A stretch of 21,194 nt of DNA from Saccoglossus kowalevskii (Eukaryota > Hemichordata > Enteropneusta > Harrimaniidae): positions 460,103-481,296 of the forward strand of contig NW_003156737.1 in NCBI RefSeq assembly GCF_000003605.2. Direction: 5' to 3'. Position 1 is the first letter of the stretch; the number at the start of each line of letters is the position of its first letter. The notes beneath the pieces were generated by a model. The model had not been told where the DNA came from. It ran no database searches and worked only from the letters and a program-made list of their open reading frames with translations. A program made the translations under genes and the position numbers. This document shows positions 1 to 20,700 of the stretch, one piece after another.

Positions 1-1265
1 TGGGACAAGTATGATCAATATTTGAACATTTGCCAATGCAGATAAACATGCCTGGACAAATTGTTATCATTCAGCAAATAAGAAGTCATGTATATTCCAT
101 GTATGATATATTGATATTAACACAAGCGATGACAGAGAGCGTAGTACCTGTATGAAAGCTTTTCATGCACGTATGCCAAGTATGGTGTTTTCATGTAGTG
201 AATGATTTCTACGTGTGCTGACTGTAGAAAAGGATGGCTTGCATTGTTCGTGCGACTGTATTAACTTGTGGCTTTCGGTATCCATAGTAATTTATATCTA
301 ACGCATGAAATTAGACAGAGGAGCCAAATGGAAATGGCGGCAAATAATAAAACACAAGTACTATATAAATAACTTCTTTATAGACTTGTCATGTGGATGA
401 TGGTTTATGTCCATTTTCCACCAACGAATTATGAGCCTCGCGTGATTTTATATGACGGTCCGAGAAGAAAATTCGGCGTTTCAAAATAAGGGATGTGACA
501 CCAGCGTGCGCTAGATGAACACATCATTGGGTATTCTAAATTAAACATTTATTTTGAAATATACACAACGCAACACCCGTTTGCAACATGCCATAATATG
601 AGGTTATTACGAGGATAGCTTAAAGTATGCATGAAGACAGTAAAGAGTATCGACCGACGCGCAGCGTCTCAGTGCATACTTTGAGGTATTCTCGTAATAA
701 CCTCATTATTATACATCTTTTCTTTCCAATGATATATCATGGGAATGCCGAAATCCAAAACAGTTTAGAACGGAATCAGCGAAGTGTTTTGTGTCGGGTC
801 GGTCAAACCCTGGTGGCAGCCATGTTTGTTTTTATTTCCATATTTGGACGAAAATACTCCGTAAAATACCGCAAAATTATGGCACGCTGTAACTTATGGC
901 GTTACGGTGACAAATGTATAATAATATTATTAATGTACATTTAATACAACTTTCCATCAAATTTTGAAATTTTTTTGAACATCGTCTATCATCGTTTTTT
1001 CAGCTTAGTAAAATATTATTTATTTTTCACTGTACCGTTACTATCAGTCTACTATTTTTTCTTTAATAACATTATAGTGAATACTTCATTTTCTGAGGCA
1101 AAACTATCGATATTTACAATTTATATGTCGACCATTTTTAAAAAGTCACGTTGTAGCCCGTACCGTACGGTTAAAGACGACTTGCTTGAATTGGTTCAAT
1201 TGGTGTAATCGAAACGTGCCTGAAAAGGTGCATCTCATATGGAAATCTGTGTTTTGTGCTTCCAG
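1..1265. other. Upstream or intronic sequence with no recognised exon
   Basis: This stretch ends in a pyrimidine-rich tract and AG at 1264-1265, the acceptor of the first visible CTLD exon. Because that exon begins at phase 1, an upstream coding exon must exist, but I see no convincing one here. Open frames at 627-944 and 975-1208 are AT-rich and lack domain signal. The stretch holds a dispersed repeat copy at 593-927, listed separately. Confidence 0.6.
593..927. repeat. Dispersed repeat, copy A, containing a long imperfect hairpin
   Basis: This segment matches 20484-20839 in the same orientation over several blocks. Shared blocks include ATGAGGTTATTACGAGGATA near its start, GGGAATGSCGAAATCCAAAAC in the middle (one mismatch between copies), GGTCAAACCC, and GGCGTTACGGTGACA near its end. 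In copy A the first 120 bases fold back on themselves: the arm at about 593-633 pairs with about 674-712, which reads CTCGTAATAACCTCATTATT. The family was not recognised. It could be a non-autonomous transposon. Outer borders are approximate because no clean target duplication was seen. Confidence 0.75.
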
Positions 1266-2748
1266 CCTCAGCGCAAAGATGTGCTGCCGGATGGAAAACA
1301 TTCCACCAAGGTTGTTATTATGTGAAGGAAGCAGATGCACCGAAGACATGGTACGAAGCAAGACAACTATGCGAAGACATTGGTGGACACTTAGCCAGCA
1401 TACATAGCGCAGAACTCAACGTACGTATCCAGCAGATCGGTTAATACAGTCCGGACTAGATTGGCCTTGAGAGTGAGAGATCCAAAAGACTTATTTCCTC
1501 CCCGTCTCCGTTTTGGAGCAGGCTAAAACCAGCCGCGATTTTTTTTTTTTTTTTGTATTTGGCGAGGGCTCAGTGGCTATTTGCAAATAGTGTCTATTGT
1601 CAAGATTAGTTGCGAATTCCTTAGTTATTTGCGTGAGTGATTGTGACTGAAATATATGGTCAATCAATGCTCAGAGCCAGATAGTCTGGGTCCATTGCAT
1701 ATGAACACAGGAATAACAATAATAAATTTGAAGGGGGAAGCAAGGAAACACATTCTCGAAACATGCCATGGCTATCACATAACTTGAATTTCTTTTACAA
1801 CTACGCAATGACACACAATAAAAATCTGTATTCGAAATAGAAATAAAACGCACGTCACAACTTGAAAATAGTTTTATAAAGAATATCCATACCTATATTT
1901 TTCTAGGAATTTCTAGCCGGGCTGCTCAACCGTAACGCCTGGATTGGTTTGCACGACATTGGTGTGGAGGATAAGTTTATGTGGGTAGATCAAACGCCAC
2001 TGGAAAGCGGTGACTATGAGTGAGCAATAGTTTACTTTTCTTTATTTCTTATAGCATTAATTTTCTTATAGCATTGTTACGAATGTACCCACAGACTGTC
2101 ACGTGAGAGTTACTGTTGACGTCTTCATTTCACATGACCGTGAAATATTCCCACCTGCGAAACGAAACGTTCGGTATTCGTAGTTCACTATGCAAGAGGA
2201 ATAAAATAGGCATCCATAGGCAATCTGAATTTCTATACTTGTTTCTGTACGCTTGTTGCTTTGTGATATCTCTGATTTGAGAACCTTAATTTGGCGACTT
2301 GATGGCCATAAACGTTTTCAAACATAAACCTATCAAAATAAGCGCTACTTTTCGGTTTTAGCAAGAAAATTCTGACCTGGATATGTGGATGTGTTTATCG
2401 TATGACGTAGATTACTTGGTATGTCAATGGTTAAATACAAACTATAGTCGACAATACAGATTCAGTATGTTCTGATCAGTAACATATGGAATTTAATATT
2501 TATAGAAATGCTTTCCCGATCACTGCCACGTGTTGAAAGCGTCCCCCTTATTTATTTGTCACAATACTGATATATAACTAGTCTCTTGGATTCTTACAGA
2601 AATTGGGATGATAATCAGCCCGATGATTGGCCGGAAATCGGAGGGGAAGACTGCGTTGAAATTAGAAAATCAAATGGCAAATGGAATGACAAATCCTGCA
2701 TTAATGAGACAACAATACTAGATTCCTACATTTGTGAATCTGTGATGA
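1266..2748 (+). CDS. CTLD1: galactose-type (QPD) C-type lectin domain, 3 exons
   Basis: The exons are 1266-1420, 1907-2019 and 2600-2748 (155, 113 and 149 bases). The domain begins with CAAGW and has the CYY, WYEAR..C and GGHLASI blocks, then [32 protein letters not shown] and a final YICE. QPD followed by Trp and by GGEDC is the arrangement known in galactose-binding CTLDs such as the asialoglycoprotein receptor. WND supplies the other calcium ligands. Galactose or GalNAc preference is inferred. The introns are phase 0 (after ELN) and phase 2 (in YENW), the same pattern as CTLD8-10. The exon could also begin at 1272, because a second AG lies at 1270-1271 in the same phase. Confidence 0.9.
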
Positions 2749-5700
2749 GTACGTATTGACCTTAGACGCAAATGGACGCCCAAGTCTCGTTGAGAGCGAG
2801 AGAACTACGAGACTTATTATTTTTTCCCTCAAATATTCTTCTACTCTCTCCTGGCATCATGCTTACTGTTCCCCTGGTCTATATAACCACGATATTTTGA
2901 AAATTGCCCGCAGTGACAAGGGGAAATGGAACATCATTTTATGGCAAAACAAGTCTTGTGAGTTTCTCGCCATCAACGAGATGTCGGCGGCCATTTGAGT
3001 CTACTTAAGATTTTTTGTAGATTCAACATGCAATATGGAGGAAAACATGTATCTTAAATATTGTTGATTGGTACTACATTTCGAGGAGCCGAGTGGATTA
3101 TAATTATTCGTAAATTAAAATTGTTGCTTTTTCATCACACTGTATTCGCTCGATGACAAACACTATCGAATATGTAGTTAGTATACGTACCAAAAATTAC
3201 AGTCTTATGCCAAAGTGAGTGTTCTCACTACTTTATATGTTTAATTTTAAGACGTACCAATTAAATGTGACGAGGACGATGATTGGATGTCCGTGAACGA
3301 TAAGTGTTATAAGTATTACAGCGCCGCCGCGTCGATGGCAAGAACGTGGGATGAAGCGAAATCGTACTGTGAGGGCGTCAGTGCGAAACTCGTAAAAGTA
3401 CATAATCAGATAATTCAGGACTACGTCACTGAGTTGTCGAAAATATCGGCATTATGGATCGGGCTATCTGATAAGGTGATGTGTATTTATGTACTGGTCC
3501 TCATAAATAGTAAAACTATGTTGACTACTTGATCGTACACCGATATTATCAAAGGAATTGGTGGAAAAAGTAATGGCACCACTATTATACAATACTATAT
3601 ACTAACATATGTAACAAAATCTACGGCTTCAACAAACTACTAAATCTAAAAAAACACTCGCAAATGATTGTATATTCCCCCCCCCACTTTATGTTGCATA
3701 CATATTTGAATTTTCACTTATGATGTTTCTCTAGGAAAATGGTGAAAGCTATACGTGGGTCGATGGTTCAATGTTGAATTATGAAAACTGGGCCGAAGGA
3801 GAACCAATAGGCGGGTAAGAGCGCTATATGGTAGAATACATAAAATATATCACATATTTTGCGTATTTGTTGTTTTGTCTTTCATCTCCTTCGAAAGTTT
3901 AATACAGGAAGAGGAGTCGGTGAATACACTGTGTTCCGATAAAAATTGCCATGGTAACATTTCTCTATGATGTCATTGTTACTCTATTATGTTTGTGTAT
4001 TTTATTTCAGAAATTCTGAAAATTGCGTCGAAGTGAAAACTTTCAACGACGGAAGATGGAGTACCACACAATGTACAATAACAAATGCATTTTTATGCGA
4101 AAAAAACGAAGGTATTTTTATTATTGTTTTTAAACATTCACCTATAAATAGCATGAAGTAAATGTCATAACTCTGGTCAAAGTTTATTATTAAAAAATAG
4201 AGAAAGTTCTTGCCAAATTTAGACTGTTTATTGTGACGTATGTTTGCTTGTAAATTGTTTTCTACAGTCATACGAGTATTGTTAATTACAGGGAAGTGCG
4301 CTCCGGGATGGTACATATTCAAAGGACAGTGTTACCAATTTAATACATATTTTCCATCCACGTGGCCAGACGCAGACCACACATGTGATGCACAAGGAGG
4401 GCACTTAATAAAAATTGACAAGTAAGTGCAATACATGGATATAACTTTAAAACGTGCACATGTGGTAATGTTCTTCACGCTCATGAGAGATGCAGTAGTG
4501 AGTATTGAGTATTCGTATAAAACGTAGTGCGTTACACTATGTTTGGCCACACCACATTGGCCATAAGCACAACACATATAATATAATAATGTGAGTTCTT
4601 ATTAGTATTCGTATTACGTATCTGAATGAAGAAACAAAACACCAATCAGCAGCAATCGCGGTATACCAAAGCGTAATTATTTTTATTTTATTTAAATAAA
4701 ATTCACAAAGATTCGTGGGTCACTGTACTGTGTTTCTCATTGTCTTCTTTTCGTTCAAAGTCAAGCCGAGCAGGATTATCTTGTCAGCCAGTTCGAACTT
4801 CTTCGCTCTGCGCATGTCCACAATATATGGATCGGTATTTCAGGTATGCACGAGTCTTATTCTTACTCAGGGTCAAAAATTACACGTACATCTACTCACG
4901 GACACGTCTGTAATTCGCTAAAACAAGGATATTACATTCGATAAATGTACAATAACCCAAGTTATTCCTTTACCCATATCAATGGGGGAAATATTCACTA
5001 AACAAATGAAAAATACAGTATCACTGAATGAAAACAATAAACACTCGCATATTGAGAGGGCGCAGCTCCATCTAATACATGTTTAGCTGAATCCCAGAAG
5101 AAAATTAGGAAGTTACCGATGTAATTTTTCAATTGTGTTCACAGATGAAGAACGCGATAATTACTTTATTTGGTCCGATGGAACGCCTGTTGTTTTTACA
5201 AAGTGGAACGATAATCAACCCGCGAACACAGAAGGACAAAGCGACTGTGGGACAATTTACACAGGTAAATTACACAGGCCGTTTTTGACATCGGGAGTAA
5301 AATAAAATAATAACAATGTCAGACATGTTATTATCAGTCTGATTTTGGATATAATTTACAAGGTAGTGTTATCTCTATTGATGTCTTCGTGAACACATTG
5401 GACTATGATTGTTTTTTGTAGCTAGTATGTATGCGTTGATAGTTTTCAATTTGCGTTCATGGTTATAAGTTGTCATTTGCGTTCGAATACAAATAATAAA
5501 CATTAAGATGAAGATTTAGCAGCATAACATTAATGTGTACCTAAGTACACCAGTAATGTATATATCTGTGTACTTTGTTACATGTTTTACGATTACAATG
5601 TTTGTTCTGTGTTTCCAACAGCTGGCTATTCGGGACCCACAACGTGGCGGGAAGATGGGCGATGCGGCTCGAATTACCCTAATGCTGACGGTGACCCTGC

Positions 5701-8700
5701 GGAATGTGATCCTAACAACGGACATCCGTGTTGTTCTCCGTATGGGTGGTGTGGACAGACCGATGCCCATTGTACATGTCCATCATGTATAGACTATACA
5801 GAATTCTATGGTAGATATTTAGAATTGCCTATTTGATGTGATAGAAATACATTTATAACATGCGCCACGATTACGATTTTAGTTAAGTGAGACACGTCAT
5901 GCAATCAGCAGCTCAATCTAGTGGGGATTATTTTCACTAGTATGTCATGCTTTAACTGTGTTGATATTGCCATAGTATATACAGCGTTTTTTTTTTTTTT
6001 TTTTTTACACACGTTGTATATATATTTTGAGTATATATATACTCCTTATATGTTTCATATAATTTCACTTTGATTTGCAATGTAACCGACTTCAAACACC
6101 TGTTCTAACTTGTTCGGATGAATATGAAAATGTTCGTGTTTCGACCTGGTATAGAGATACATGGAAGTCTAAATTGTCGGGTGATTTTATTTCATATTTG
6201 CAAAGTAATAATGCTCAGATTTTAAAAGGAGAATTTGAAGTGATGTTAGCTAATTTAAACATCAATGGGGAATATTTTTGACAATAATATTTTTGCTGCG
6301 ACGCATATGAATGAAGTCATTTTAATTTCTGAAGTAGCACACACAATAAATAACCTACTGTGAACAAATCGCCGAGCTCCAACATATAGTGTTATATACT
6401 TTGCTGTCTATTGCATTGTAAAAAGTTTGTGTACCATAGGCTTGGGCCTGTAATGAAAATAATAAACTTGTACACTTTACAATATACCCATATCGAATGT
6501 GATTTTTAATTCCTACAACGCTGGCACCTGAATATACTGTTGTCAGCACAGTCAGCTAGCGGGGCTTTATATGCGTGAAAAAAAGATCACTTTTAAAGTG
6601 GACATAGCATCGACACCTGACTGGTGTTGCCAGAAACTAAACAAATATATGTATGTTTTTCTTTATTTCAGAACTTGGTGATTGGGACACGTACAACTGT
6701 TACGTTCTTCAAGCATTTGTATGTGAAATACAAGTAGGTGAGTGTATCTGCTTGGCACTGGTATATGTATTGTATATTAACATTTTCCGAAATTATACCA
6801 GCGATTTTTTATGAAAAGGATAGCGATGTACTGACGTTGTCATACTGTGATAACTCTGCAAACTATTTACGTGTAGCATGTTGTTTTATATAGGACGAGA
6901 CCCAGTACCACTCGAGCCAGGTGTTGGAATTGGACACTGTGATCCGGGGTGGAATCTCCATGGCGATTATTGTTATCTGCTGGAGACGAATCAGCTCGCT
7001 TTCCATGACGCCGAGGACGCATGCGTCGAGTTGGATGCAATGCTGACAAGTATAGTGGATGGCCAGGAACAAAGTTTTCTCAGTGGTGAATTTGTGTTTT
7101 CTTAGTAACCAAATTAAACATAATAATTTTACGATTTTCGCAAACGGTTTGACTCTTGGTTTACGCGTAAAATGTATTCATTAATACCAACGATATAGTG
7201 CAGTTTTTCATTTCTCTGATTTTTATTTATTCATTCGTAGGTCGAATTGACAACTATCGCACAGCTATGTGGATTGGTTTACACGATAGAAATGGTGAAC
7301 TGGATTGGGAATGGTTAGATGGGGAACCGGTAATTATTAAGCTGTGTACCAAATATTTGTAAACACCACACTTTACTTGCAGTTACACTATAGTATATGA
7401 ACACTAACCAAGGATGAATGTTTGAGACGATAAGAGATTTTCGAAAACAAATAACACGTACAGAAAATGTGTAAAACAAAACTGCTCATACACAGTGCAT
7501 TAATGTTACTCACCAATGTTTGCATAGTGTTTTATGCAAGGTTAAAACAACGTTATTTGTCAAGTCAACTCACTGGAGCAGTATCGAAACTATTTAAAAA
7601 CAAACTAATCTAAATAATCTTTAATATAATTCTATATATTGTATTTGTCTTTTATAGTACAGTTTTACAAACTGGGACACCAATGAACCGAACGACGCTG
7701 GGACCGGGGAAGACTGTGTGCATATGGTGCACGATGAAACGAACGTTGGACAGTGGAACGATAGACCATGTGATCAAACACTGGGTTATGTCTGCAAGAA
7801 ACAAAAATGTGAGTTGCCTAATTTACGTAATGCCAATATTCTTATCTCTATGATCCCATTGTCTAATAATAATTTATTTACTTCTATTGCTAATGACATC
7901 TTTCTCCAACAAATAAATTTCTAAAAGAATTATTACATGGTTTGACAGGACAGTCCAAGTTAGTGGTCCGCGTACAGCAAATGTCCTATCACCACGTGGT
8001 ATTAAACGCGTAATTAAAAAATATATATATTAGAACATTCAGATGCTATCTTAACACAGTTTCCTTTGGAAATTGTTTCAAAAATGTATCATTCTAGACA
8101 GTTTCATTCCAATGTTTCGTGAGGAAAAAAGCGAAAACATGTGACATTCGTTCAAATCAATAATTATGTGAAACCTTTTGAAACAAAATTTATGATAATT
8201 TGTTCAACCGTTTTTTAAGTCAAATACCTTAACATTTTCAGATGGGATCTTTGATCCTTGATCGAAACACTCGTATCTACTCGTTAAATATGATCTGAAC
8301 CAAGCAAAGACCCTCTCTCTGAAATACTCAAATATTGGACTGGCTGTCTCATTTCCAATTACTATAAAACTTAATGGTGTTTATTAAAAAGTAATTTATA
8401 GCATGATGTATTATTTTACAGACGGTGGTGGCATAGTAACAGTAGCCCCGAGACCAACGCGTAAGTTGAAGTTTCAATTGTTTTGATCTTACTTATTAAA
8501 TAAAGTGTGGATCATAAACAGTAATATAGGCGACGCCATGATAATAAAACATCGACATCTAATAAGGGTTTATCGATACAGTACGATACGCAATGTTGTT
8601 GCTAAAATTCCATATTACATTTTAAACGCGTTTTCACTAGGTTGTTGCCACAATACAGATAAAATGACCGAAATTTCTTTCCAATGTTATCTTCATTACT

Positions 8701-11700
8701 TTGTAGCGATTTTTAATCCACGGTGTGGGAGTGGTTATGAATACAACCCTGACACGGCAACTTGCTACAAGTTCGTTCCTGATTGGGTGGAAGCGGTAAC
8801 CCAACATGACGCTGAAGATATTTGCAACAAAGGTGGTGGTCATTTAATAAGCATTGAAAATAGCGAAGAGCAGACGTTTATAGATGGTAGGTAAAAACTA
8901 AAGAATCGAATATGCGTGTAAACAACACGAGTATGAGTGAGTTAAATCTACATTTTTAAAACAGCATAGCAACTTCAAAATTAAACCACTAAATTATTTC
9001 ACAATATAATTTAGTGGCAAGCAACGGTAATGCTCAACAGTCGCTATTGACAACACATACATATTATTAAATAAATCATATCCAAAACCAAATATACAAG
9101 TGTATTTTACGTAAAATAAAAGCAAGTGACAGCAAAGCAGTGGTTAATTTGTGTGGGTGAAAAGTTGTTAGCTGAACTATATTGTTTGAGGCATTATGTA
9201 TCATGGTTTGTCTTGGTGAGATTGATGTACAGATACAGTATAACGCATTATACATAGTTTGTATCTTACTTGCCTTTAATTAGAAAGACATTGACTATTT
9301 TCGGAGGGTATGTGAGGAATTGAATTAACATTTTACAAATACAAGTTTAAAACAAACCTAACAAACTAGATCAATATTTGCAACTAATTGCCTTTTTTTA
9401 TTTTTTGTTTTGTTTTATAGAGTAAATCTGGCACAGCGCCCTAGCCAATGCATGTATGTAAAATCGTAATCCCATAGCCTTGTGTTTTATTACAGCTCGT
9501 CTTTACGGATTGAACGTACATGTTCTTTGGATTGGTGCCCACGATTTGGGTACTGAGGGTGGATGGGAATGGACTGACGGAAAGCCATTTTCATATCTTA
9601 ACTGGGGAGAAAGTATGCCATTTTTACGTTTTATATCATTATACTTGATCTAAGTCATATTAAACTCTATCACTCGGAAAATATTGTTGTATCGTGCGTC
9701 GTGATTACAATCATGTTTCGACTGTCATCCCTGCGTGTACCTTCAACTGTACCGTAAACAAATGACAACGAAACAATGAAGAACTATTCTTTTTTATGTT
9801 TTTATTTTTCTTCGCCAGACGAACCAAATAATGCAGGGGAAGGTGAAGACTGCACTGAGTTAATCGTAGGCATGAAAAACTGGAATGACATGTCTTGTGA
9901 TCAAGAGATCGGATATATATGCAAAAATAAAGGTAACAGAGAATAAAATACAATTTATTTGTGTTAAATAGATTGTATACTCAAGATCTAAATATCAACT
10001 CTTACATGTCCATTTGGATAATCAATATATTACAGGTCCATTGGTAGACTATTTCAACGTCTATCATAACGCTGCGTTAGATGGCTACGATACAAAGATT
10101 ATTGAGGGCCCAGTCTATCCACAGGATTGTGCAACTCTATGTCTGGAAGAATTGACCTTCACTTGTAATTCATTCGACTANNNNNNNNNNNNNNNNNNNN
10201 NNNNNNNNNNNNNNNNNNNNNNNNNNNNNNCGATAAAGTTAATCTACAGTGTGTTCTGAGTAATTCCAATCAACACTCAGGTGGTGGGTTACGGACTGAT
10301 TATCCAGACAATGTTTATGATTATTATGAAGTCGGTAAGTTATCGATGGTTTGCCGAATATGATTCAATGCACAGTAGAATCACTTTGCATGTAGACAAG
10401 CCAGCAGACTTTTTTTCGGCATTTTTTTTGTTACGAGTAGGCATCCATGCTATTTCAAGTCCTTATATAGAAAGTGTTCACGTCAGGGGCGATGCAAAAT
10501 TAAAAATCATTTTTGGGCCAAAAACCCCCATTTTTGGGTTAAAATTTTAAAATAGTCCAATCCATTTGAGATGCGAATCAATTTACTGGTCTTGACGAGT
10601 AGAGATCAAAAATATATAATTTGACCTATTTTTGACCTTGCGTAACGTCACAATGACCGAAAATGTGAAAAGGTCAACATACTTTGCTACTCGTAGTTTA
10701 CTGTTTTGTTTCCACGGAATATAAATTGATAATACAAGCTTCGATTTCATCACAGTGAATGAATATAAATCAATATTCATTTTCGCTTACTAGTGTTTTG
10801 GCATTATAATATCAATGAAATGTGATAAATAAATGAAGTCATTATTAATTTGAGAACTATTTTTGCAGTGGATCGTCCTAATCCTGTCGTCATAACACCG
10901 TTGCCAAGTGGTTCTCGCTGCAGATCTGGATGGTCTAGTTTTGGTAACAATTGCTACATGGTAATAACCACAGGTCAAAGTTGGAATGATGCAAAAGATA
11001 CCTGTAGACGAGAAGGTGGTGATCTTGTTTCCATAGCGGACAAAAACGAAAATGACTACGTTCTCACACTTAGTCGTGCATGTAAGTAAACTCTCGGAAT
11101 ATTATCAGTTAGAATGTTATCACGTGTCATTCCGGATGCATAGTTCGTGATGGACGCCGCAAGGTAAAACATATACAATCTGATTGCTACCAAGTTGACT
11201 TAAATTTGCATATAATTAGAACGTTATTTTTAGTGACCACATTTCGGCTACCGTAAATACCCTTAGAAAGGTGTAACATTGCAATCATCAAATACTTTAA
11301 CAACACAACTAGTGCCATTATCACCACTAGGAACGTCTTTATAATCGTTCCATTGGCCATAGAAATTGAGAAAATAATTATAGCAAAGTTAGTATTTTAC
11401 TAGTTACTTTAGTAGTAACTAATCGCTGTAATACTTACCAAAATCAATACACATACTTGTCTTAGGGACGACGTCAAAAGATCGATGTCGGATAAAAAAA
11501 CTTAATTCCTTTAGTTTTTTCCAAACCCCCTCACCCCCCATTAAAACTTAATATATAAATATTGGTCATGGCGTCAGACTACATTCACCATTAAATACAA
11601 ATTGATAATCGGACAGTAGTATTGCATAGCAGTTGGTTGTCGGGTGGGTGTAAAAAGACTTTACAAATGCACCTCATTTGACGCAGATATTTACACTCGA

Positions 11701-14700
11701 ACCAAGCCATTTTCTCGTCTTGGATGTTTTTTTTTCCTTTTCGGTTATTTCTGTCCATGATTGAAATACTCCAAGATTTTTTTGACTTCATTAAAAATTA
11801 AAATCGTTTTTGTAGGATGGAAACTTTTTGAGGTCAAAACCCCCCACCCCCAAACTAAAGCAAATAAGTTTTTTATCCGACATCGATCTTTTGACGTCGT
11901 CCCTTACTAACTTATTTTATATGGTGAATAGTCACGTGACACTGAACGCAATGTAACGCATGAACACAAAATCGTGCAGGATATTAATGACTCCAAAACA
12001 CGTTGTTGATTGTCACATGCCACCACCCATAATTCTTTGTCGGAAATATTTGGGTATCGCATGAGTTAATGTTAAAGTGGACAATGAAACTTATTTGTGT
12101 GCAACCAACCAGATGTGAAAATACGTCTGTATTGCTTCTCATTATCTTAATTAATTTTCATGAACCTGTGAGAAATGCTATGATGACAGCGTATTGCCAA
12201 TTTGATATTTCATGAATAATATATCCCCCATTTTGAGGGACTTTTGTCATGGCATTGTTGGGACAATTGTGCGTACAAAAACATCAGTACAGTGATGGTT
12301 GTGTTATTCTAATCGCGTATTTTACCTGCATATCAGTGATAGATATATTGCGGTCAACCTTTACTATTCAGAAGCATCTTTTCTCGGCTAAAAAGCAAAA
12401 GTAAATATCATAACACATCTCATTATATGATCTCATTAGTCAATCTGCGTTCACCTAATGTTATACTTTTACTCCGAAACGAGGATAACAGTCAACAGTT
12501 TAAAACCTGTTCTCGAAATGAAGATATGAAAGAAAAAGTACGTAAAAACACTGTGATAAGCATTCTTGTGTGTTACCTAAGATACTTTTTTAAACATTAC
12601 GTTCACTTTCAACTCGGCGTCCAACGACACAATGAAGCCATCCCATACGTTATGCGGCCTTTCTTACTTTTATAGTCAAACAAACAATTAAGCACATATG
12701 TTTTATAACACATCACACGCAGAATTGCCGAAGGAACGTGCATAGATCGTCTGCCGTCTTCTTCCCGACGTCTGCTAGCGGTGTCCCGATTTCTTCACAA
12801 AACGATGTAAAGACGCTTCTAGAAAACGTCCTTCGTCTTTGGTGCATCTTTATTTGCTACTAGTGTGTCAAGTTCTTCTTCTGAACTAAAGCTAAATCGT
12901 CCAGTCTTTCGAGGCGGGCCAAAGATATTAGCGACCGAACTAGCAGACGACATATTGGAAATCACACGATCAGGTGACGAGTGACGTCATCCCCGGGCAC
13001 TAGTTGACGTACTCTCCCTAGGGAACTAGAAATTTGCCTGGCGCTACTATGGTAATTTAGCAGATAACACGTGATCCTGTTTTGGCCAATTACAGTACAG
13101 TATCAACAAGTGATGTGTTATAAATGTTATTATTTCCCAGCTTGTGATGCCTGGTATAGCGATTCGACACCTGATTTTCTCGATTACCATTGGATAGCTG
13201 CACCTGGGGAGCATGTTGTTTTTGAAGTCATGGCAACTAACGATGCACATGTTGCTCTATCTGAAGACCAAAATGATGCTGGTGCTTTTTATGAGATAGT
13301 GATAGGCGGCTGGGACAACACACAGTCCGTTATCAGACGGTGCGCTCAGTGTGCCAATTTAGTAGAGGTCAGCACTCCTGGGATATTGGTTGCCAACAAG
13401 TGGAGAGGATTCTGGATAACTTGGCGTGATGGCATCATCAAAGTGGGAAAGGAAGACGAAAATGCGTTTATGGAATGGACTGACCCTTCTCCGTTGCCAG
13501 TAAACTATGCTGGTTATAGCACAGGACGGGGTAGCGAGGGGGAGTTCAAATTTTGCACCGTTAATACGCGTATGTATTCTATTTAATTGTATTGTATTTT
13601 TAGTCCACTTTCGGATTGACCTCTGTACGTGCATCTGTGCATCTGGGCATGCGTCCGGCTCTATATGTTAGACAGGCTTGGACTGATTACGTTAAAACTT
13701 CACACGTACATCATACATAGTAGTATACATATGCACATCAATGTGTTTCACGATCTGATTCAAGATGGGCAAATGGCGGCCATCAAAATCAAGCAACCCG
13801 GAACCGGATCGGCTGTTTTCATATGTTCAAACTTGGTACATTGTGTGACATTGACGCACGTGAATCTGTTTTTCAAATCAGATTCAAAATGGCTGACTGC
13901 CTGCTATAATGTTTTAATGAGTGCGGTTCTAGAGCCATATCTTCTGTTTGTTTTTTCCTCTCTTCTTCTCTCTATAATGATGTTATATTTATTCATTTAA
14001 TGCAGTTGACAAACTTTGGATTGGTTTGCATGATCAATTGCAGCAGATGACATTTCAGTGGAGTGACATGTCCCCCGTTACATACACATTATGGTCTGCG
14101 AGCGAACCAAACAATTATCTTGGTCGATCAGAAGACTGCGTTCTTATGTATACTAATGTATGTTAAATATAACCTATTTATTATAAAAATTTTAGCATAA
14201 TTTCCTCAAATATTTAAAATTTAATGCTTAAGATTTAATGAGTTTATTCTATATCATATATTGCTTCACATATTCAGGGTGACATGGTTGGTCGCTGGAA
14301 CGATGAAGATTGTTTTGCATTAGTACCATCGGTTTGCAAAACTGCTAAAGAAGTGCTGCCACCAACTACACCTTCCACGGGTGATTGCTCGTCAGTAAGT
14401 TACCTCTAATCTCTAGTCTTTTTATTTTCGCAATTTTATTACACAGGATTTATTTTTCATTTCGCTCTGAGTTAATGATCGTGTTTCGCTAAATGGGTTA
14501 GTGTTCACTCGTTTGACGGTGCATTCTCTCGACAGGGGTGGGTAGGCTACCACACGTCATGCTATAAGTTCGAGTCCAATTCTAAAACAAATTGGAATTC
14601 TGCACAAGATATCTGTCAACAGTCCGGGTCAAGTCTGGTAACAGTTAATGATAAGTAAGTATATCTAAATTTAGCCATGGTCTGTGTTCATTATTTCGTA

Positions 14701-17700
14701 AGACTTCAACTTAAGTTGTTACGCTCTATTAAGAATGACAGTGGGTTAACCCGTTTGTTTTATATTGTCCTATTTTTTAGCTGGGAGCAAGCCTTCCTGT
14801 CATCTAGGTTGAGCTCAGATAGAAACAGTGGATTGTATTGGATTGGTTTATCAGATACTTACGAAGTCGGTACTTATACATGGGTTAGCAATGAGCCTGT
14901 TGAGTATACTAACTGGGCCCGTGGATATCCAGGTGGGTACTCAGTATGTATTGCGTCCGCGAGGTCAAAGATAATAATGAGGTTCTAAGAAAGTTGAAAA
15001 TAATTTGTCTTTAATCGTATTTCAGAGGGTTCTCAGAATTGTGCCCCAGGATGGACGATGTTCCAAGACAGTTGTTTCTATTTGGGAGGTGCACAGGGGT
15101 CACAGTCGTGGTACGAGGCTAGCGATGAGTGCGCAGGTTTGGGTGGCCATCTTGCAGTCATTGACAGCAAGGCACTCAATGTAAGTATTAAAGAGTTTGG
15201 TTATCAATATTCAAGCTTATTTAAAAAAACACAGCCTATATAAGCATGCTGTAAGTGATGTGTACTAATGCTGCTTTGTTTTATCCCGATCCAGGATTTT
15301 TTACAGAATTTCGGTCTAACGTACTCGTGGATTGGCCTACACGATGTCAATAACGAAGGGAATTTCGAATGGGTCGATGGAACACAACTCAAAGGCGGAG
15401 CGTATAAGTGAGTCAAAAGCAAATAGCATGTTCACTTTTTAATACATTCATTTGTGTTAGTTCACTAGCACTTTATCCCATGCCATGCCAAATGGGTACT
15501 ACAACAATATATGAATTTGTATTAAATACTTACCGATAATTATTATGATTGTGTGGAATCCTACTTTTGTAGAAACTGGGACAATGATCAACCTGACGAC
15601 TGGCAAGAACCAATCTCTAATGAGGACTGTGTTGAAATGAGATCTTCTGGTAAATGGAATGATAAACATTGTTCTGAGGCGACTGTGTTGGATGGCTTTA
15701 TTTGTCAGCTGGAAAATCGTAAGCCCAAATTTATCATTGCATTGCGCTTTTCAATGATTATTGTGACTGCATAAATATACGATTCGTACCAGTATGGTGA
15801 ATATTGGAAGAATATAACACAGGATTGAATAGTAATCTAAATGCATATCAAATGTATTGGGTTCATATATGCATATTCAACTTAAATATGCTATTGTCGA
15901 CTATGTACAGTAATTGACAATTGGTGTGGGTTTTTTTTTTTGATTGACTATCAGAGGCTTCCTGTACATCTGGGTGGTGGCCGCATGGAGGAGACTGTTT
16001 TCGTCTAGAAACTACAAAGGGACCTAAGAGCTGGTATCAATCAAGTGACGAATGCACTGGTTTGGGTGGACATTTAGCAGTAATAGATAGTCAGGAACTC
16101 AATGTAAATATACTTTATAATTATATGTATATGTAAATACGCGGGGTTGCGCCCAGGACTTAAGAGGGCGCCACCAATTAAAATACAGTTTTGTCAATCG
16201 AACCTCAGAGATTACGGTACACGAGTACAACTTACCGATCAGCGGGCAAAACCCCGGGGGCAGTTGATACATAGCTGGCTAGGGAGGTGCACCGGAGTGC
16301 TCAAAAGAGTGTGACCATTTTTATAACTGGATAGTGGCAAAAGCCATACCAATATTTATACCGAAGTACCATTTCTGTCATCACTGTTTATTCCACAAAA
16401 AAGGTACCGTATTTGCTCTATTAGAAGAACATCTCAAATAGAAGCACATGTTAGCCAACAGTTGCATTGTATATTGATTTATTAAAATATGTATTTTGAC
16501 CATAGAAACGCTTCTGTCACTTATATAAGAGCATATTATTAACACAATATTCAGGTTATTTAGCGTTGTGTAGGACCACTTTGCTCATGCAATTGTGTCT
16601 AAAACAATAGTTGGGGTTAATAGTATGTATTAATAATTCACCGTGCATTTTTAGAGAACGAATAAGATTTCTCAACTTGAAGCATAGAACATATAGCCTT
16701 GTCAACGTATGCCATATTTTCGCACCAAACTTTTTTATAACAGGTCAATTACAATATGGTTACACTTTCTAGTTGCTTTTTCGTTTTTAGGATTTCCTCG
16801 CAGGATTGGCTAGCTCGAGTTTCTGGATCGGATTACATGACATCGATAACGAAGGGAATTTCCAGTGGGTAGATGGAACAGCACTTGATGGCGATGCGTA
16901 TCAGTGAGTGAATATATCCATTAATTATTTGACAATGTAATTCATTTGATTAAATTAATTTCATTATATGTTCTAATTTTGTGTATACTAAAATGGATCT
17001 ATCAGTACTACGAATAGTGTGTCATATAATTAATAGGAAGAACAATTAATTCACTAAATTATAGTTAAGGTACGTAATGGTTCCTCTTCGACAAATTCTG
17101 CTTGATGCCGGGATATTGCATTAAATTATTATTACACTGACTCCTACCAAGTAATCCTAAACGTAGAATACAGCCTATATGGCAGCACGCTATGCATTGG
17201 CGGATCCAGAAAATCGATAAGGTGGGCGCGCCTCCCCCTAAATCCGCGCGTGCAATGTGCATACATTCACGAATTAGAGTTGTATGTCAAACGTTTCGTA
17301 TGTGCTTATTTTTTGTATTTATTGTGTGTTTACTTTCTAAAGATTATATGACAATGGGGGCATAATGTCAATGGTTAATATTTCGAGGGTAAACGATATT
17401 CATGTGTGTATGTGTTTACCCTTTGGTCATTAGCCTTGATTCAAACTCATTCAATCATACATATTTAATTTGTCTTTCAAAGAAACTGGGAAGACAATCA
17501 ACCTGACGATTGGGGAGGAAACCACGGTGGTGAGGACTGCACCGAGATGAGACCGAATGGAAAATGGAATGACAAATCGTGCTCAGACATTGAGTACTTG
17601 GATGGTTTTATTTGCCAACGACCACAGTCACGTATGACATTTCTTTATTCTGCTAACAGGGTTCATCATAACAATGTTCTATGTATTGTTTTGAACACAT

Positions 17701-20700
17701 TTCAGCCATGTGTTAGAGGAAAAACCCACAGCGATCATGCAAAGAGAAACGTTACAAGAGTTTCCTTGTTAGCATCATATATTTGAACTGTGGTGTTCAG
17801 GAATGCTAAAGCCAAATACTAACTTCAATGTTTGTATATAGTCTAAATGTGGCATACAACCACGGGATTCAAACAGACAAACAGCGTGGATTGTGTATTC
17901 CCGTGGATATCCATGTAGAGGTGTGTCTAAATACAAATCAAATTTCTGCGACTGTATGAACTTTTATTTATTGATACATTAGAAGATGGTTATGTGCCAG
18001 GCGCTTATTTCATACATTGAATACTTGAAATAAGTAATAAGTAATAATAAGTAATCAATATGTCTGCATGTTAAAAATTTCGTATACATATGTGATATGT
18101 CACGTGTGTATGTTTTAAGATCGAACTTTATGAAAAGATTTTAAATCGGTATAACTGTTTGGTATTTTCAGAGGGTTCATGTTCACACGGATGGAACAAA
18201 TATCAAGACGGAAACTGTTACAAACTAGAAGCAGCACAGGGACCAAAGACCTGGTTCCAGGCCAGTGATGAATGCACTGGTTTGGGTGGACACCTCGTTG
18301 TTATTAGCAACAAAGCCATCAATGTAAGAGACTAATGTAGATTCATTCAAACTGACGTTTTTCAATATTATTTTGGTTTAATTTTCATTCCAATAAAATA
18401 CTGCTTTCAAAGTAATGGAATGTAATATATCCATTCCTCCCGTTTAATCCGATTCAGGATTTCCTCCAAAGCTATGCCAGCACGTACTACTGGATTGGTC
18501 TACATGACGTCGATCACGAAGGGACTTTTCAGTGGGTTGATGGAACACCGCTCGATGATAATGCTTACAAGTGAGTAATAACATGTAATCGCATTTATGA
18601 CAAACGCACAGAAAACCATTGGCTGGAACAGATGGTAACAAAAATATAATGTAGTAACTGTTGATGAAATACGATGTTCTGTGTTTTCTTAGAAACTGGG
18701 ATGATGGGCAACCTGACGACTGGCAACTTTTTAATGGCGAAGATTGTGTTGAAATAAGACATAATAATGGAAAATGGAATGATAAAAAGTGTACGGAAAC
18801 TATAACTTTGGAAAACTATATTTGTCAACGGGAAATGTGTGAGTTCACTAGATTTGTTTTTTGATAACGTGTGTGCATATCTCGGTGCTTTACGTTGCAT
18901 GACAGGCAAATTATGATCTTTTCTATTGACAACTCATCTGAATAATGGTCATTACGGTGGTTAAAGAGAAAGCATGCACAACTCGACGCTGAGGGATCTC
19001 ACGCCATGCGTGGTACCGAACGTAAACATTGACAAAGTGAATTTTCGGGACTTGTTTAGTGACTCGTTGTAAACTACGTAAATAAAAATGTCACCGTCCT
19101 CCCACCAATCAACTATGTGCACAGAAATGAAACTGCCCTCTTCAAGTTAAAAGCAGAAAAACCTCCCCGCCCACTAACCTAAACAATATTTTCCCGCCCG
19201 CCCGCAAAACCTCACTCGCACAGCTTTTTAAAGGATCAGCTTCATTGACTTCTTCTGACCTCTTATTGATTCTTGATAAAATGGCGAATAACTGCTCAAC
19301 CTGACATACACATGTGAACACATTTACATTTATAGACGCAGTTGTCGGCGATTGTGTTGCCATGGCATCTGGTAGCGTCGCTACTGGTCTCTGGAGCGGA
19401 AATGGCTGCGGAGATCAGAATTCTTACATATGTGAGAAACTGAAAGACGGATACACACATCCACCGGGCCAAGGACACCATACTATTCCATCTAATAGAG
19501 ATTGTGGTACCGGGTGGATAGGTTATGGATACAACTGCTTTATGGTAATCTAAAAATATCTTGTTCAATTTAATTTGAGCTAGTCAGTCAGTATATATTG
19601 TATTTTTGTCCATAGACTAGCGCATGCAAATCGCGCACTGACTTCGTTTATTACTTTGTAATGAAGCTAAGAATTCTGATTATAAGTTGTTATCTAATTT
19701 CAGCCGTATCGTAAACTTGGTGGTTATGACCAAAAGACTTGGAATGATGCCTTGCAGTATTGCCGTGATCAGGGTGGTGATCTGGCGAGTTTCCATAGTC
19801 AAGAGGAAATGGATTACCTCATACAGAACTCGTTGTTGGCGTGAGTAAAAGCGCGGTTGTCGTCGCGCAGTGCGTGTTCGAATTTCATGTAAATAAACAA
19901 TGAATTTTACACGCGTTGTATACGTCGCTATGAGTCCCATATCGAACAGGATGCGGCACGACGACTGTCGCCATTTAAACAACGAGTCTATATTATGAAT
20001 CATCTGCGACTAATCGGTATATTGTTATAGCTATATAATTGTGGTTGATTTTTACTTATTATTCGTACATTTCACAAATGTCATGTTGGCAGCCTTTAGC
20101 TTTACTGACGCCATATTGTATCTCTTTTCCCAGCGACGTATTTGATTCGTACTGGATTGGGTTGAATGACCTTGACATGGAGACAGGTAACGTTCTACTA
20201 CATTCTTTTTTCGCTTTGTTTGTTTTCGATTACAAATTTGCGAGTAACCTGTCAACGAACGGTGCATATTTGCTGATGATAAAAATAAATTAATTTAGAA
20301 TTTCTTTAAAAAAACATCTGTCGGTCAACTGCAGATTATAACATTATCAACGCTGTAAACGACATTACTTTCCCCCAGTTATGTCGCACAATTGCTGTGT
20401 TATTAGAGAGCGCTATATACTAGTAGTTTTGGGATTGATTTCATTTAAAAGTTGACAACACATTGATAAAATGATATCGGCGAATATTATGAGGTTATTA
20501 CGAGGATACAGCAAAGTATGCACGAAGATAATACAGTGGGAGTATCGAACCACGCCCAGCGGTCGATTTACATATTTTTCTCCTAGAAATACATTATGGG
20601 AATGGCGAAATCCAAAACGTTTAGAACCGTGACCGATTTAACGAACTTCTTTGTGTGGGGTTCGGTCAAACCCTTGGGTCAGTCATATTTTTTATTATTA

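What the first reader, a model, noticed from the sequence alone, without database searches (positions are those of the whole stretch)
4292..19439. Three lectin domains in one gene are each interrupted by other whole modules at phase-1 introns
The sequence shows CTLD3, CTLD6 and CTLD7 each split, respectively by a hevein-like exon, an FA-domain exon and a block of three CTLDs. The splits fall at three different places in the CTLD fold, yet every insert begins and ends at phase 1, so each can be skipped with the frame and host domain intact. Phase 1-1 modules are the classic substrate of exon shuffling. Modules placed repeatedly inside rather than between CTLDs are unusual to my knowledge. The inference is a lectin whose binding repertoire can be altered by including or skipping nested modules, either fixed as domain-in-domain proteins or by alternative splicing.
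Basis: partly seen in the sequence, partly recalled or inferred. Interest (0 to 1): 0.88.

Follow-up and report, generated by a model that had tools for sequence, protein, structure and literature searches.

The report
Lectin domains carrying whole inserted domains
One animal gene encodes a string of sugar-binding lectin domains, three of which have other complete protein domains built into their middle; sister genes in the same genome show that two of these arrangements are old and shared, and that the third was added later at a spot that the sisters still have empty.

Summary
CTLD3, CTLD6 and CTLD7 are split at three places in the fold by a hevein-like exon (5622-5810), an FA-domain exon (13141-13569) and a three-CTLD block (15026-18838). 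Each insert enters and leaves at phase 1; removing it restores a full-length Lectin_C match.

Hevein-in-CTLD3 is present in all 5 loci (window included) where that CTLD was found. FA-in-CTLD6 is present in 4 loci (window included); one has its upstream half in an N run. The CTLD7 phase-1 intron is present but empty in all 4 other paralogues where it was found. Nested exons are under purifying selection.

Best reading: exon shuffling into existing intradomain phase-1 introns made fixed domain-in-domain proteins, two insertions ancestral to the family, one gained in the window gene's lineage. The two hosts cut near the ligand site lack canonical sugar motifs; the block supplies three QPD/WND-type CTLDs.

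Alternative splicing is untested; only a weak hevein donor hints at it. Phase-1 symmetry is a frame requirement, not an independent surprise. No RNA, structure model or other animal genome was available.

The parts
1266..2748 (+). CTLD1 (exons 1266-1420, 1907-2019, 2600-2748); QPDDW and WND motifs; introns phase 0 and 2
3252..4111 (+). CTLD2 (exons 3252-3475, 3735-3814, 4011-4111)
4292..5264 (+). CTLD3 first part (exons 4292-4421, 4761-4843, 5145-5264), ends DCGTIYT, phase 1
5622..5810 (+). Hevein-like exon nested in CTLD3, phase 1-1, 8 Cys
   Evidence: same nesting in 4 paralogues
6672..6737 (+). CTLD3 last part (GDWDTYNC...VCEIQV)
6894..7808 (+). CTLD4 (exons 6894-7085, 7241-7329, 7658-7808); EPN and WND
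8422..8460 (+). Short linker exon, phase 1-1 (tentative)
8707..9932 (+). CTLD5 (exons 8707-8886, 9496-9612, 9819-9932); EPN and WND; both inner introns phase 1
10036..10334 (+). PAN/apple-like exon, interrupted by 50 N at 10181-10230
   Evidence: (PAN_1 19.4 bits, below cut-off 21.4)
10869..11081 (+). CTLD6 first part, ends before beta-2 (WIGL), phase 1
13141..13569 (+). FA-domain (PF12248) exon nested in CTLD6, phase 1-1, 4 Cys
   Evidence: same nesting in paralogues
14006..14394 (+). CTLD6 second part (exons 14006-14157, 14278-14394), EPN and WND; the last residues of the second exon begin CTLD7
14536..14932 (+). CTLD7 first part (exons 14536-14654, 14781-14932), ends NWARGYP, phase 1
15026..15718 (+). 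Nested block, CTLD8 (exons 15026-15180, 15295-15407, 15573-15718), QPDDW/WND
15955..17631 (+). Nested block, CTLD9 (exons 15955-16103, 16791-16903, 17483-17631), QPDDW/WND
18172..18838 (+). Nested block, CTLD10 (exons 18172-18323, 18458-18570, 18693-18838), QPDDW/WND
19336..19544 (+). CTLD7 last part (GDCVAM...WSGNGC...YICEK) and the start of CTLD11
   Evidence: homologous exon directly follows CTLD7b in 4 paralogues
19704..21110 (+). CTLD11 (exons 19704-19840, 20134-20186, 20937-21110), EPN and WND

Best explanation
This is part of one large gene for an extracellular mosaic protein with at least 11 CTLDs, in which complete modules were inserted by exon shuffling into phase-1 introns that already cut the CTLD coding sequence, and were kept as domain-in-domain proteins. 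Shown here: exon map, phases, intact host CTLDs after removal of the inserts, recurrence of hevein-in-CTLD3 and FA-in-CTLD6 in paralogues, an empty CTLD7 site in four paralogues, purifying selection on the nested exons. Inferred: the inserts are translated constitutively; each folds on its own (even Cys counts: 8 in hevein, 4 in FA, 6 in each CTLD) and projects from a loop of its host; host disulphides, of which the C1-C4 pair brackets all three sites and the C2-C3 pair brackets the hevein site, staple the host halves together across the insert (disulphide pairing recalled from known CTLDs). The hosts cut next to the ligand site (CTLD3, CTLD7) lack the canonical sugar motifs and act as scaffolds; CTLD6, cut on the far side of the fold, keeps EPN/WND. 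The block gives the window protein three more QPDDW/WND-type, probably Gal/GalNAc-binding, CTLDs besides CTLD1. Likely role: a multivalent glycan- or microbe-binding protein of innate defence or the extracellular matrix (inference).
For: Exon map and splice sites. Skip forms restore full-length Lectin_C, inclusion forms break it. Paralogues: hevein between CTLD profile positions about 108 and 108 in window gene A and B, C, E, F; FA between about 54 and 58 in A, B, C, and with the downstream half seen in D. HEV and FA exons phase 1-1 in every one of these, with flanking host exons in phase 1 wherever both were readable. CTLD7 phase-1 intron empty in B, C, D, E, with lengths 94, 976, 1045 and 126 nt. 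Unrooted tree places A with B and F apart from C, D, E, so one gain of the block in A is simplest. NG86 dN 0.19-0.41 for HEV (10 pairs) and 0.28-0.43 for FA (6 pairs) with dS saturated or 1.3-2.4; block copies dN 0.25-0.35, dS 1.4-3.2. Repeats among the block copies are confined to exons. C10 matches CLEC10A at 1.1e-19, its best single-CTLD chain.
Against: No transcript or protein evidence. Gene ends, signal peptide and membrane anchor are not seen (N runs). The weak HEV donor with the strongest acceptor of 38 just downstream could mean that HEV is often skipped. For HEV and FA no paralogue with an empty site was found, so that they were inserted, rather than the hosts having been assembled around them, rests on domain logic. 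Two CTLD7 introns (C, D) are about 1 kb and were called empty only by profile search and ORF inspection. In E the CTLD6 first half lies in an N run, so FA there is unknown. First-guess acceptors for the last CTLD3 exon of B and C gave phase 0; the phase-1 sites were chosen by homology with A.
Confidence: 0.8

Rival explanations
1. Regulated cassettes: the nested modules are included or skipped by alternative splicing, so one gene makes several lectins with different binding sets.
For: All three inserts keep frame when skipped and the skip form is a complete CTLD. The HEV donor is 2nd weakest and its acceptor 6th weakest of 38, while the next acceptor is the strongest.
Against: FA donor ranks 20th and acceptor 31st, block entry acceptor 24th and block exit donor 19th of 38, that is, ordinary. 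HEV donors of paralogues C and E look consensus-like. The block would need nine exons skipped together. Conservation of the inserts does not call for skipping.
Confidence: 0.15
2. The inserts are separate genes or unused exons nested in introns of a CTLD gene.
For: Reading through the CTLD10 donor meets a stop after 8 codons.
Against: The 93-nt intron before CTLD8 has two ATGs, neither opening a frame into CTLD8. Nested HEV and FA exons keep phase, place and strand in paralogues and are under purifying selection.
Confidence: 0.04
3. Assembly or haplotype artefact: exon order was scrambled by scaffolding.
For: The assembly has many N runs around the window; the block is seen in the window gene only.
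Against: The sole N run in the window is 10181-10230, outside all three nested regions. HEV and FA nesting repeats on other contigs.
Confidence: 0.03

Closest known systems
Mannose-receptor-like multi-CTLD proteins (CTLD group VI: MRC1, MRC2, PLA2R, LY75)
   Same: Long tandem array of CTLDs; the best solved matches of CTLD3 and CTLD10 are PLA2R, yolk sac IgY receptor and LY75.
   Different: Hevein-like, FA and PAN-like modules, and modules inside CTLDs. No ricin-B or FN2 was met in the exons scanned; gene ends are not seen, so membership is open.
Phase 1-1 exon shuffling of extracellular modules
   Same: All inserts are 1-1; lancelet shuffled exons are reported to be biased to 1-1 (PMC4284660, passages); 28 of 49 novel-exon domains gained in the middle of proteins were flanked by symmetrical phases (PMC2926785, passages).
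   Different: Target introns lie inside the recipient domain rather than between domains.
Hevein-like domain of PGRP3 (solved as 4zxm, 4z8i; from an amphioxus, recalled)
   Same: Sequence match over residues 5-59 of the exon, E 4.4e-17.
   Different: There it lies beside a PGRP domain as a separate module, here inside a CTLD.
Known intron sites in CTLD genes (fish antifreeze-like: upstream of C1, downstream of WIGL, between C2 and C3; PMC514892, passages)
   Same: The hevein insert sits between C2 and C3, a site where CTLD introns are on record.
   Different: There the intron carries no module.

Membership tests
CTLD (Pfam Lectin_C) | full-length profile match over the cut-off of 22.6 bits | tested here: met
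   11 of 11 CTLDs of the window, 77.0-93.5 bits, CTLD3, 6 and 7 in skip form
CTLD (Pfam Lectin_C) | six Cys of the long-form CTLD | tested here: met
   6 Cys in each of 11; pairing recalled
FA domain (PF12248) | profile match over the cut-off of 24.2 bits | tested here: met
   131.8 bits, profile 4-136 of 140
Hevein-type chitin-binding domain (PF00187) | profile match over the cut-off of 27.8 bits | tested here: not met
   24.9 bits; yet PGRP3 match E 4.4e-17 and hevein 1t0w E 0.0089, so called hevein-like only
PAN/apple domain (PF00024) | profile match over the cut-off of 21.4 bits | tested here: inconclusive
   19.4 bits on the part before the 50-N gap
Mannose-receptor group VI | N-terminal ricin-B and FN2, at least 8 CTLDs, one transmembrane helix | tested here: inconclusive
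   11 CTLDs seen; gene ends lie in N runs, so the ends could not be tested
Galactose-type CTLD | QPD plus WND | tested here: met
   CTLD1, 8, 9, 10 by sequence; CTLD10 nearest single-CTLD chain CLEC10A; sugar specificity itself not tested
Alternatively spliced cassette exon | skip and inclusion junctions in RNA | not testable with these tools
   no RNA data

The most novel reading that the evidence does not exclude
A lectin family in which degenerate CTLDs have become docking scaffolds: their loops have repeatedly taken up whole binding modules by exon shuffling, each stapled in by the host's own disulphides, and inclusion of at least the hevein module is regulated by splicing, so that the same protein array can be re-equipped without altering the number of CTLD platforms.
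Probability: 0.15. Interest if true: 0.85.

Novelty: new variant of a known kind. Interest (0 to 1): 0.6.

Why it matters
Exon shuffling is taught as joining modules end to end. Here one gene has taken modules into the inside of a compact disulphide-bonded domain at three different places, and the genome keeps a before-and-after pair for one of them: the same phase-1 intron empty in four paralogues and filled with three CTLDs in the window gene. That makes it testable how a fold tolerates a 100-400 residue guest, and whether such insertions begin in domains that have already lost their binding site.

Tried and rejected
Separate nested genes: rejected on the paralogues and on the 93-nt intron before the block. 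Assembly artefact: unlikely. Recent block: rejected, since the copies have dS 1.4-3.2 and repeats limited to exons. Phase 1 as a surprise: by hand count, 5 of the 22 other introns inside CTLDs are phase 1, 9 phase 0, 8 phase 2; but only a phase-1 intron can take a 1-1 module in frame, so no significance is claimed. Nested module in a 1.8-kb CTLD intron of paralogue C: only retroelement-like and other ORFs, judged by eye. FA against solved structures: 0 matches up to E 1. Literature: ten searches; no listed title or abstract start described a module inside a CTLD; this covers only open-licence PMC papers and those terms. PMC4967905 (abstract and passages) warns that odd lancelet domain architectures, one with Lectin_C, were gene-prediction errors; that warning applies here until RNA is seen.
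Full report
What is there. The window (C4613:460103-481296 of a 572-Mb genome) holds the middle of one large gene on the + strand. I mapped 38 exons; 37 have GT/AG borders by direct reading or after correction of two ends (FA, CTLD6c), and one, the PAN-like exon, contains the window's only N run, 10181-10230. They encode eleven CTLDs, all with full-length Lectin_C matches of 77.0-93.5 bits when CTLD3, 6 and 7 are read in skip form, plus a hevein-like exon, an FA-domain exon, a PAN-like exon and a short linker.

The nesting. The hevein-like exon lies between C2 and C3 of CTLD3 (profile about 93 of 107), FA lies between the second helix and WIGL of CTLD6 (about 38), and a block of three CTLDs lies in the long-loop part of CTLD7 (about 84). 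Skip forms score 85.0, 84.2 and 77.0 bits in one stretch; inclusion forms are truncated or split. All inserts are phase 1 at both ends. Structural names of the sites follow conserved motifs and recalled CTLD anatomy, not a model.

Paralogues. I call the window gene A, and others B (C4613:356-384 kb, minus strand), C (C1649), D (C777), E (C4131), F (C166); these labels are mine. Of 41 hevein-like places in the genome, 30 loci were read; 5 have CTLD halves on both sides that break at profile about 108 of my window profile: A, B, C, E, F. Two more (L037, L058) have one CTLD piece nearby and 23 have none in the 1.5-kb flanks. Of 11 FA places (all read), A, B and C have CTLD6 halves on both sides (A's first half seen in the window), D has the second half with an N run where the first should be, one (L020) has a CTLD piece but no such split, and six have no CTLD piece in the flanks. 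HEV is phase 1-1 in A, B, C, E, F and FA in A, B, C, D. My first-guess acceptors for the last CTLD3 exon in B and C were phase 0, and the first donor guess in F was not found; the sites homologous to the window's are phase 1.

The empty site. CTLD7 was found in B, C, D, E besides A. In these four the two exons that flank the block in A are separated by one phase-1 intron of 94, 976, 1045 and 126 nt. My CTLD profile found nothing in them, and no CTLD-like ORF was seen by eye. In the tree of concatenated pieces, A goes with B and F, and D with C and E (support 97 for the latter split, 61 for B+F; F has only 61 residues). One gain in A is therefore simplest. The block copies resemble one another (58-60% over two exons) more than CTLD1 (41-45%) and share CTLD1's intron phases 0 and 2. 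For the third exon of CTLD9, matches of 56-64% are CTLD8, CTLD10, CTLD1 and places on C4613 and C166. So a CTLD1-type unit is the likely source (inference).

Selection. NG86 dN for HEV is 0.19-0.41 in 10 pairs; dS could not be estimated in 7 and is 1.3-1.7 in 3. For FA dN is 0.28-0.43 in 6 pairs; dS could not be estimated in 5 and is 2.4 in 1. Block copies: dN 0.25-0.35, dS 1.4-3.2. I read the missing estimates as saturation. The inserts are thus old and constrained, which fits coding use.

Sugar motifs. CTLD3 lacks EPN/QPD together with WND in A, B, C, E, F (QPA, QPV, QPV, QPV, HPL; WDT or WSA). CTLD7 lacks them in A-E (GYP or QPG; WSG or WYG). CTLD6 has EPN and WND in A-D; in E it has EPY and WVD. 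CTLD1, 8, 9, 10 have QPDDW and WND; CTLD4, 5, 11 have EPN and WND; CTLD2 does not. The link of these motifs with sugar type is recalled knowledge. CTLD7 lacks them with and without the block, so the block did not cause the loss there. Thus the two hosts opened beside the ligand site are degenerate and the host opened away from it is not. With three hosts this is a pattern, not a test.

Splicing. Leave-one-out scores over the 38 exons: HEV donor 2nd weakest (2.5 bits, median 6.8), HEV acceptor 6th weakest, the acceptor after it the strongest; FA donor 20th, FA acceptor 31st, block entry acceptor 24th, block exit donor 19th from the weakest. Only HEV hints at skipping, and paralogue HEV donors vary from weak to consensus-like.

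Taxon. In the mitochondrial contig C4830 ATA stands at Ile sites of COI, AAA at Lys sites of ND1, AGA at a Ser site, TGA is Trp. This fits hemichordates rather than echinoderms or lancelets; the conserved sites and codes are recalled, so this is a lead only.

Known ground. 1-1 exon shuffling, CTLD arrays, hevein-like domains in deuterostomes and domain insertion as such are known. I found no report of modules inside CTLDs in ten searches of open-licence PMC papers, which is a narrow look. I rate it a new variant of a known kind. Open risks: no RNA, no structure model, gene ends unseen.

Noticed in passing
window 11464-11904: A 441-bp element with perfect 36-nt terminal inverted repeats, MITE-like, in the intron before the FA exon.
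   Followed up: partly
window 593-943 and 20484-20856: Two copies of an interspersed repeat, 78-83% alike in pieces, in introns near both window ends.
   Followed up: no
L060 5633-7436 (C1649:52281-54084): A 1.8-kb CTLD intron of paralogue C holds long ORFs, one of which reads by eye like a reverse transcriptase remnant.
   Followed up: no
L068 (C4830:12-16 kb, mitochondrial contig): Codon use fits a hemichordate-type mitochondrial code: ATA Ile, AAA Lys, AGA Ser, TGA Trp.
   Followed up: partly
L040-L050 (C120, 11.6 kb): Near-identical hevein-like exons about every 1.03 kb along a small contig.
   Followed up: no
G000:C4110 and C3820: Almost identical CTLD exons repeated about every 8 kb on C4110, either a tandem array or an assembly effect.
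   Followed up: no
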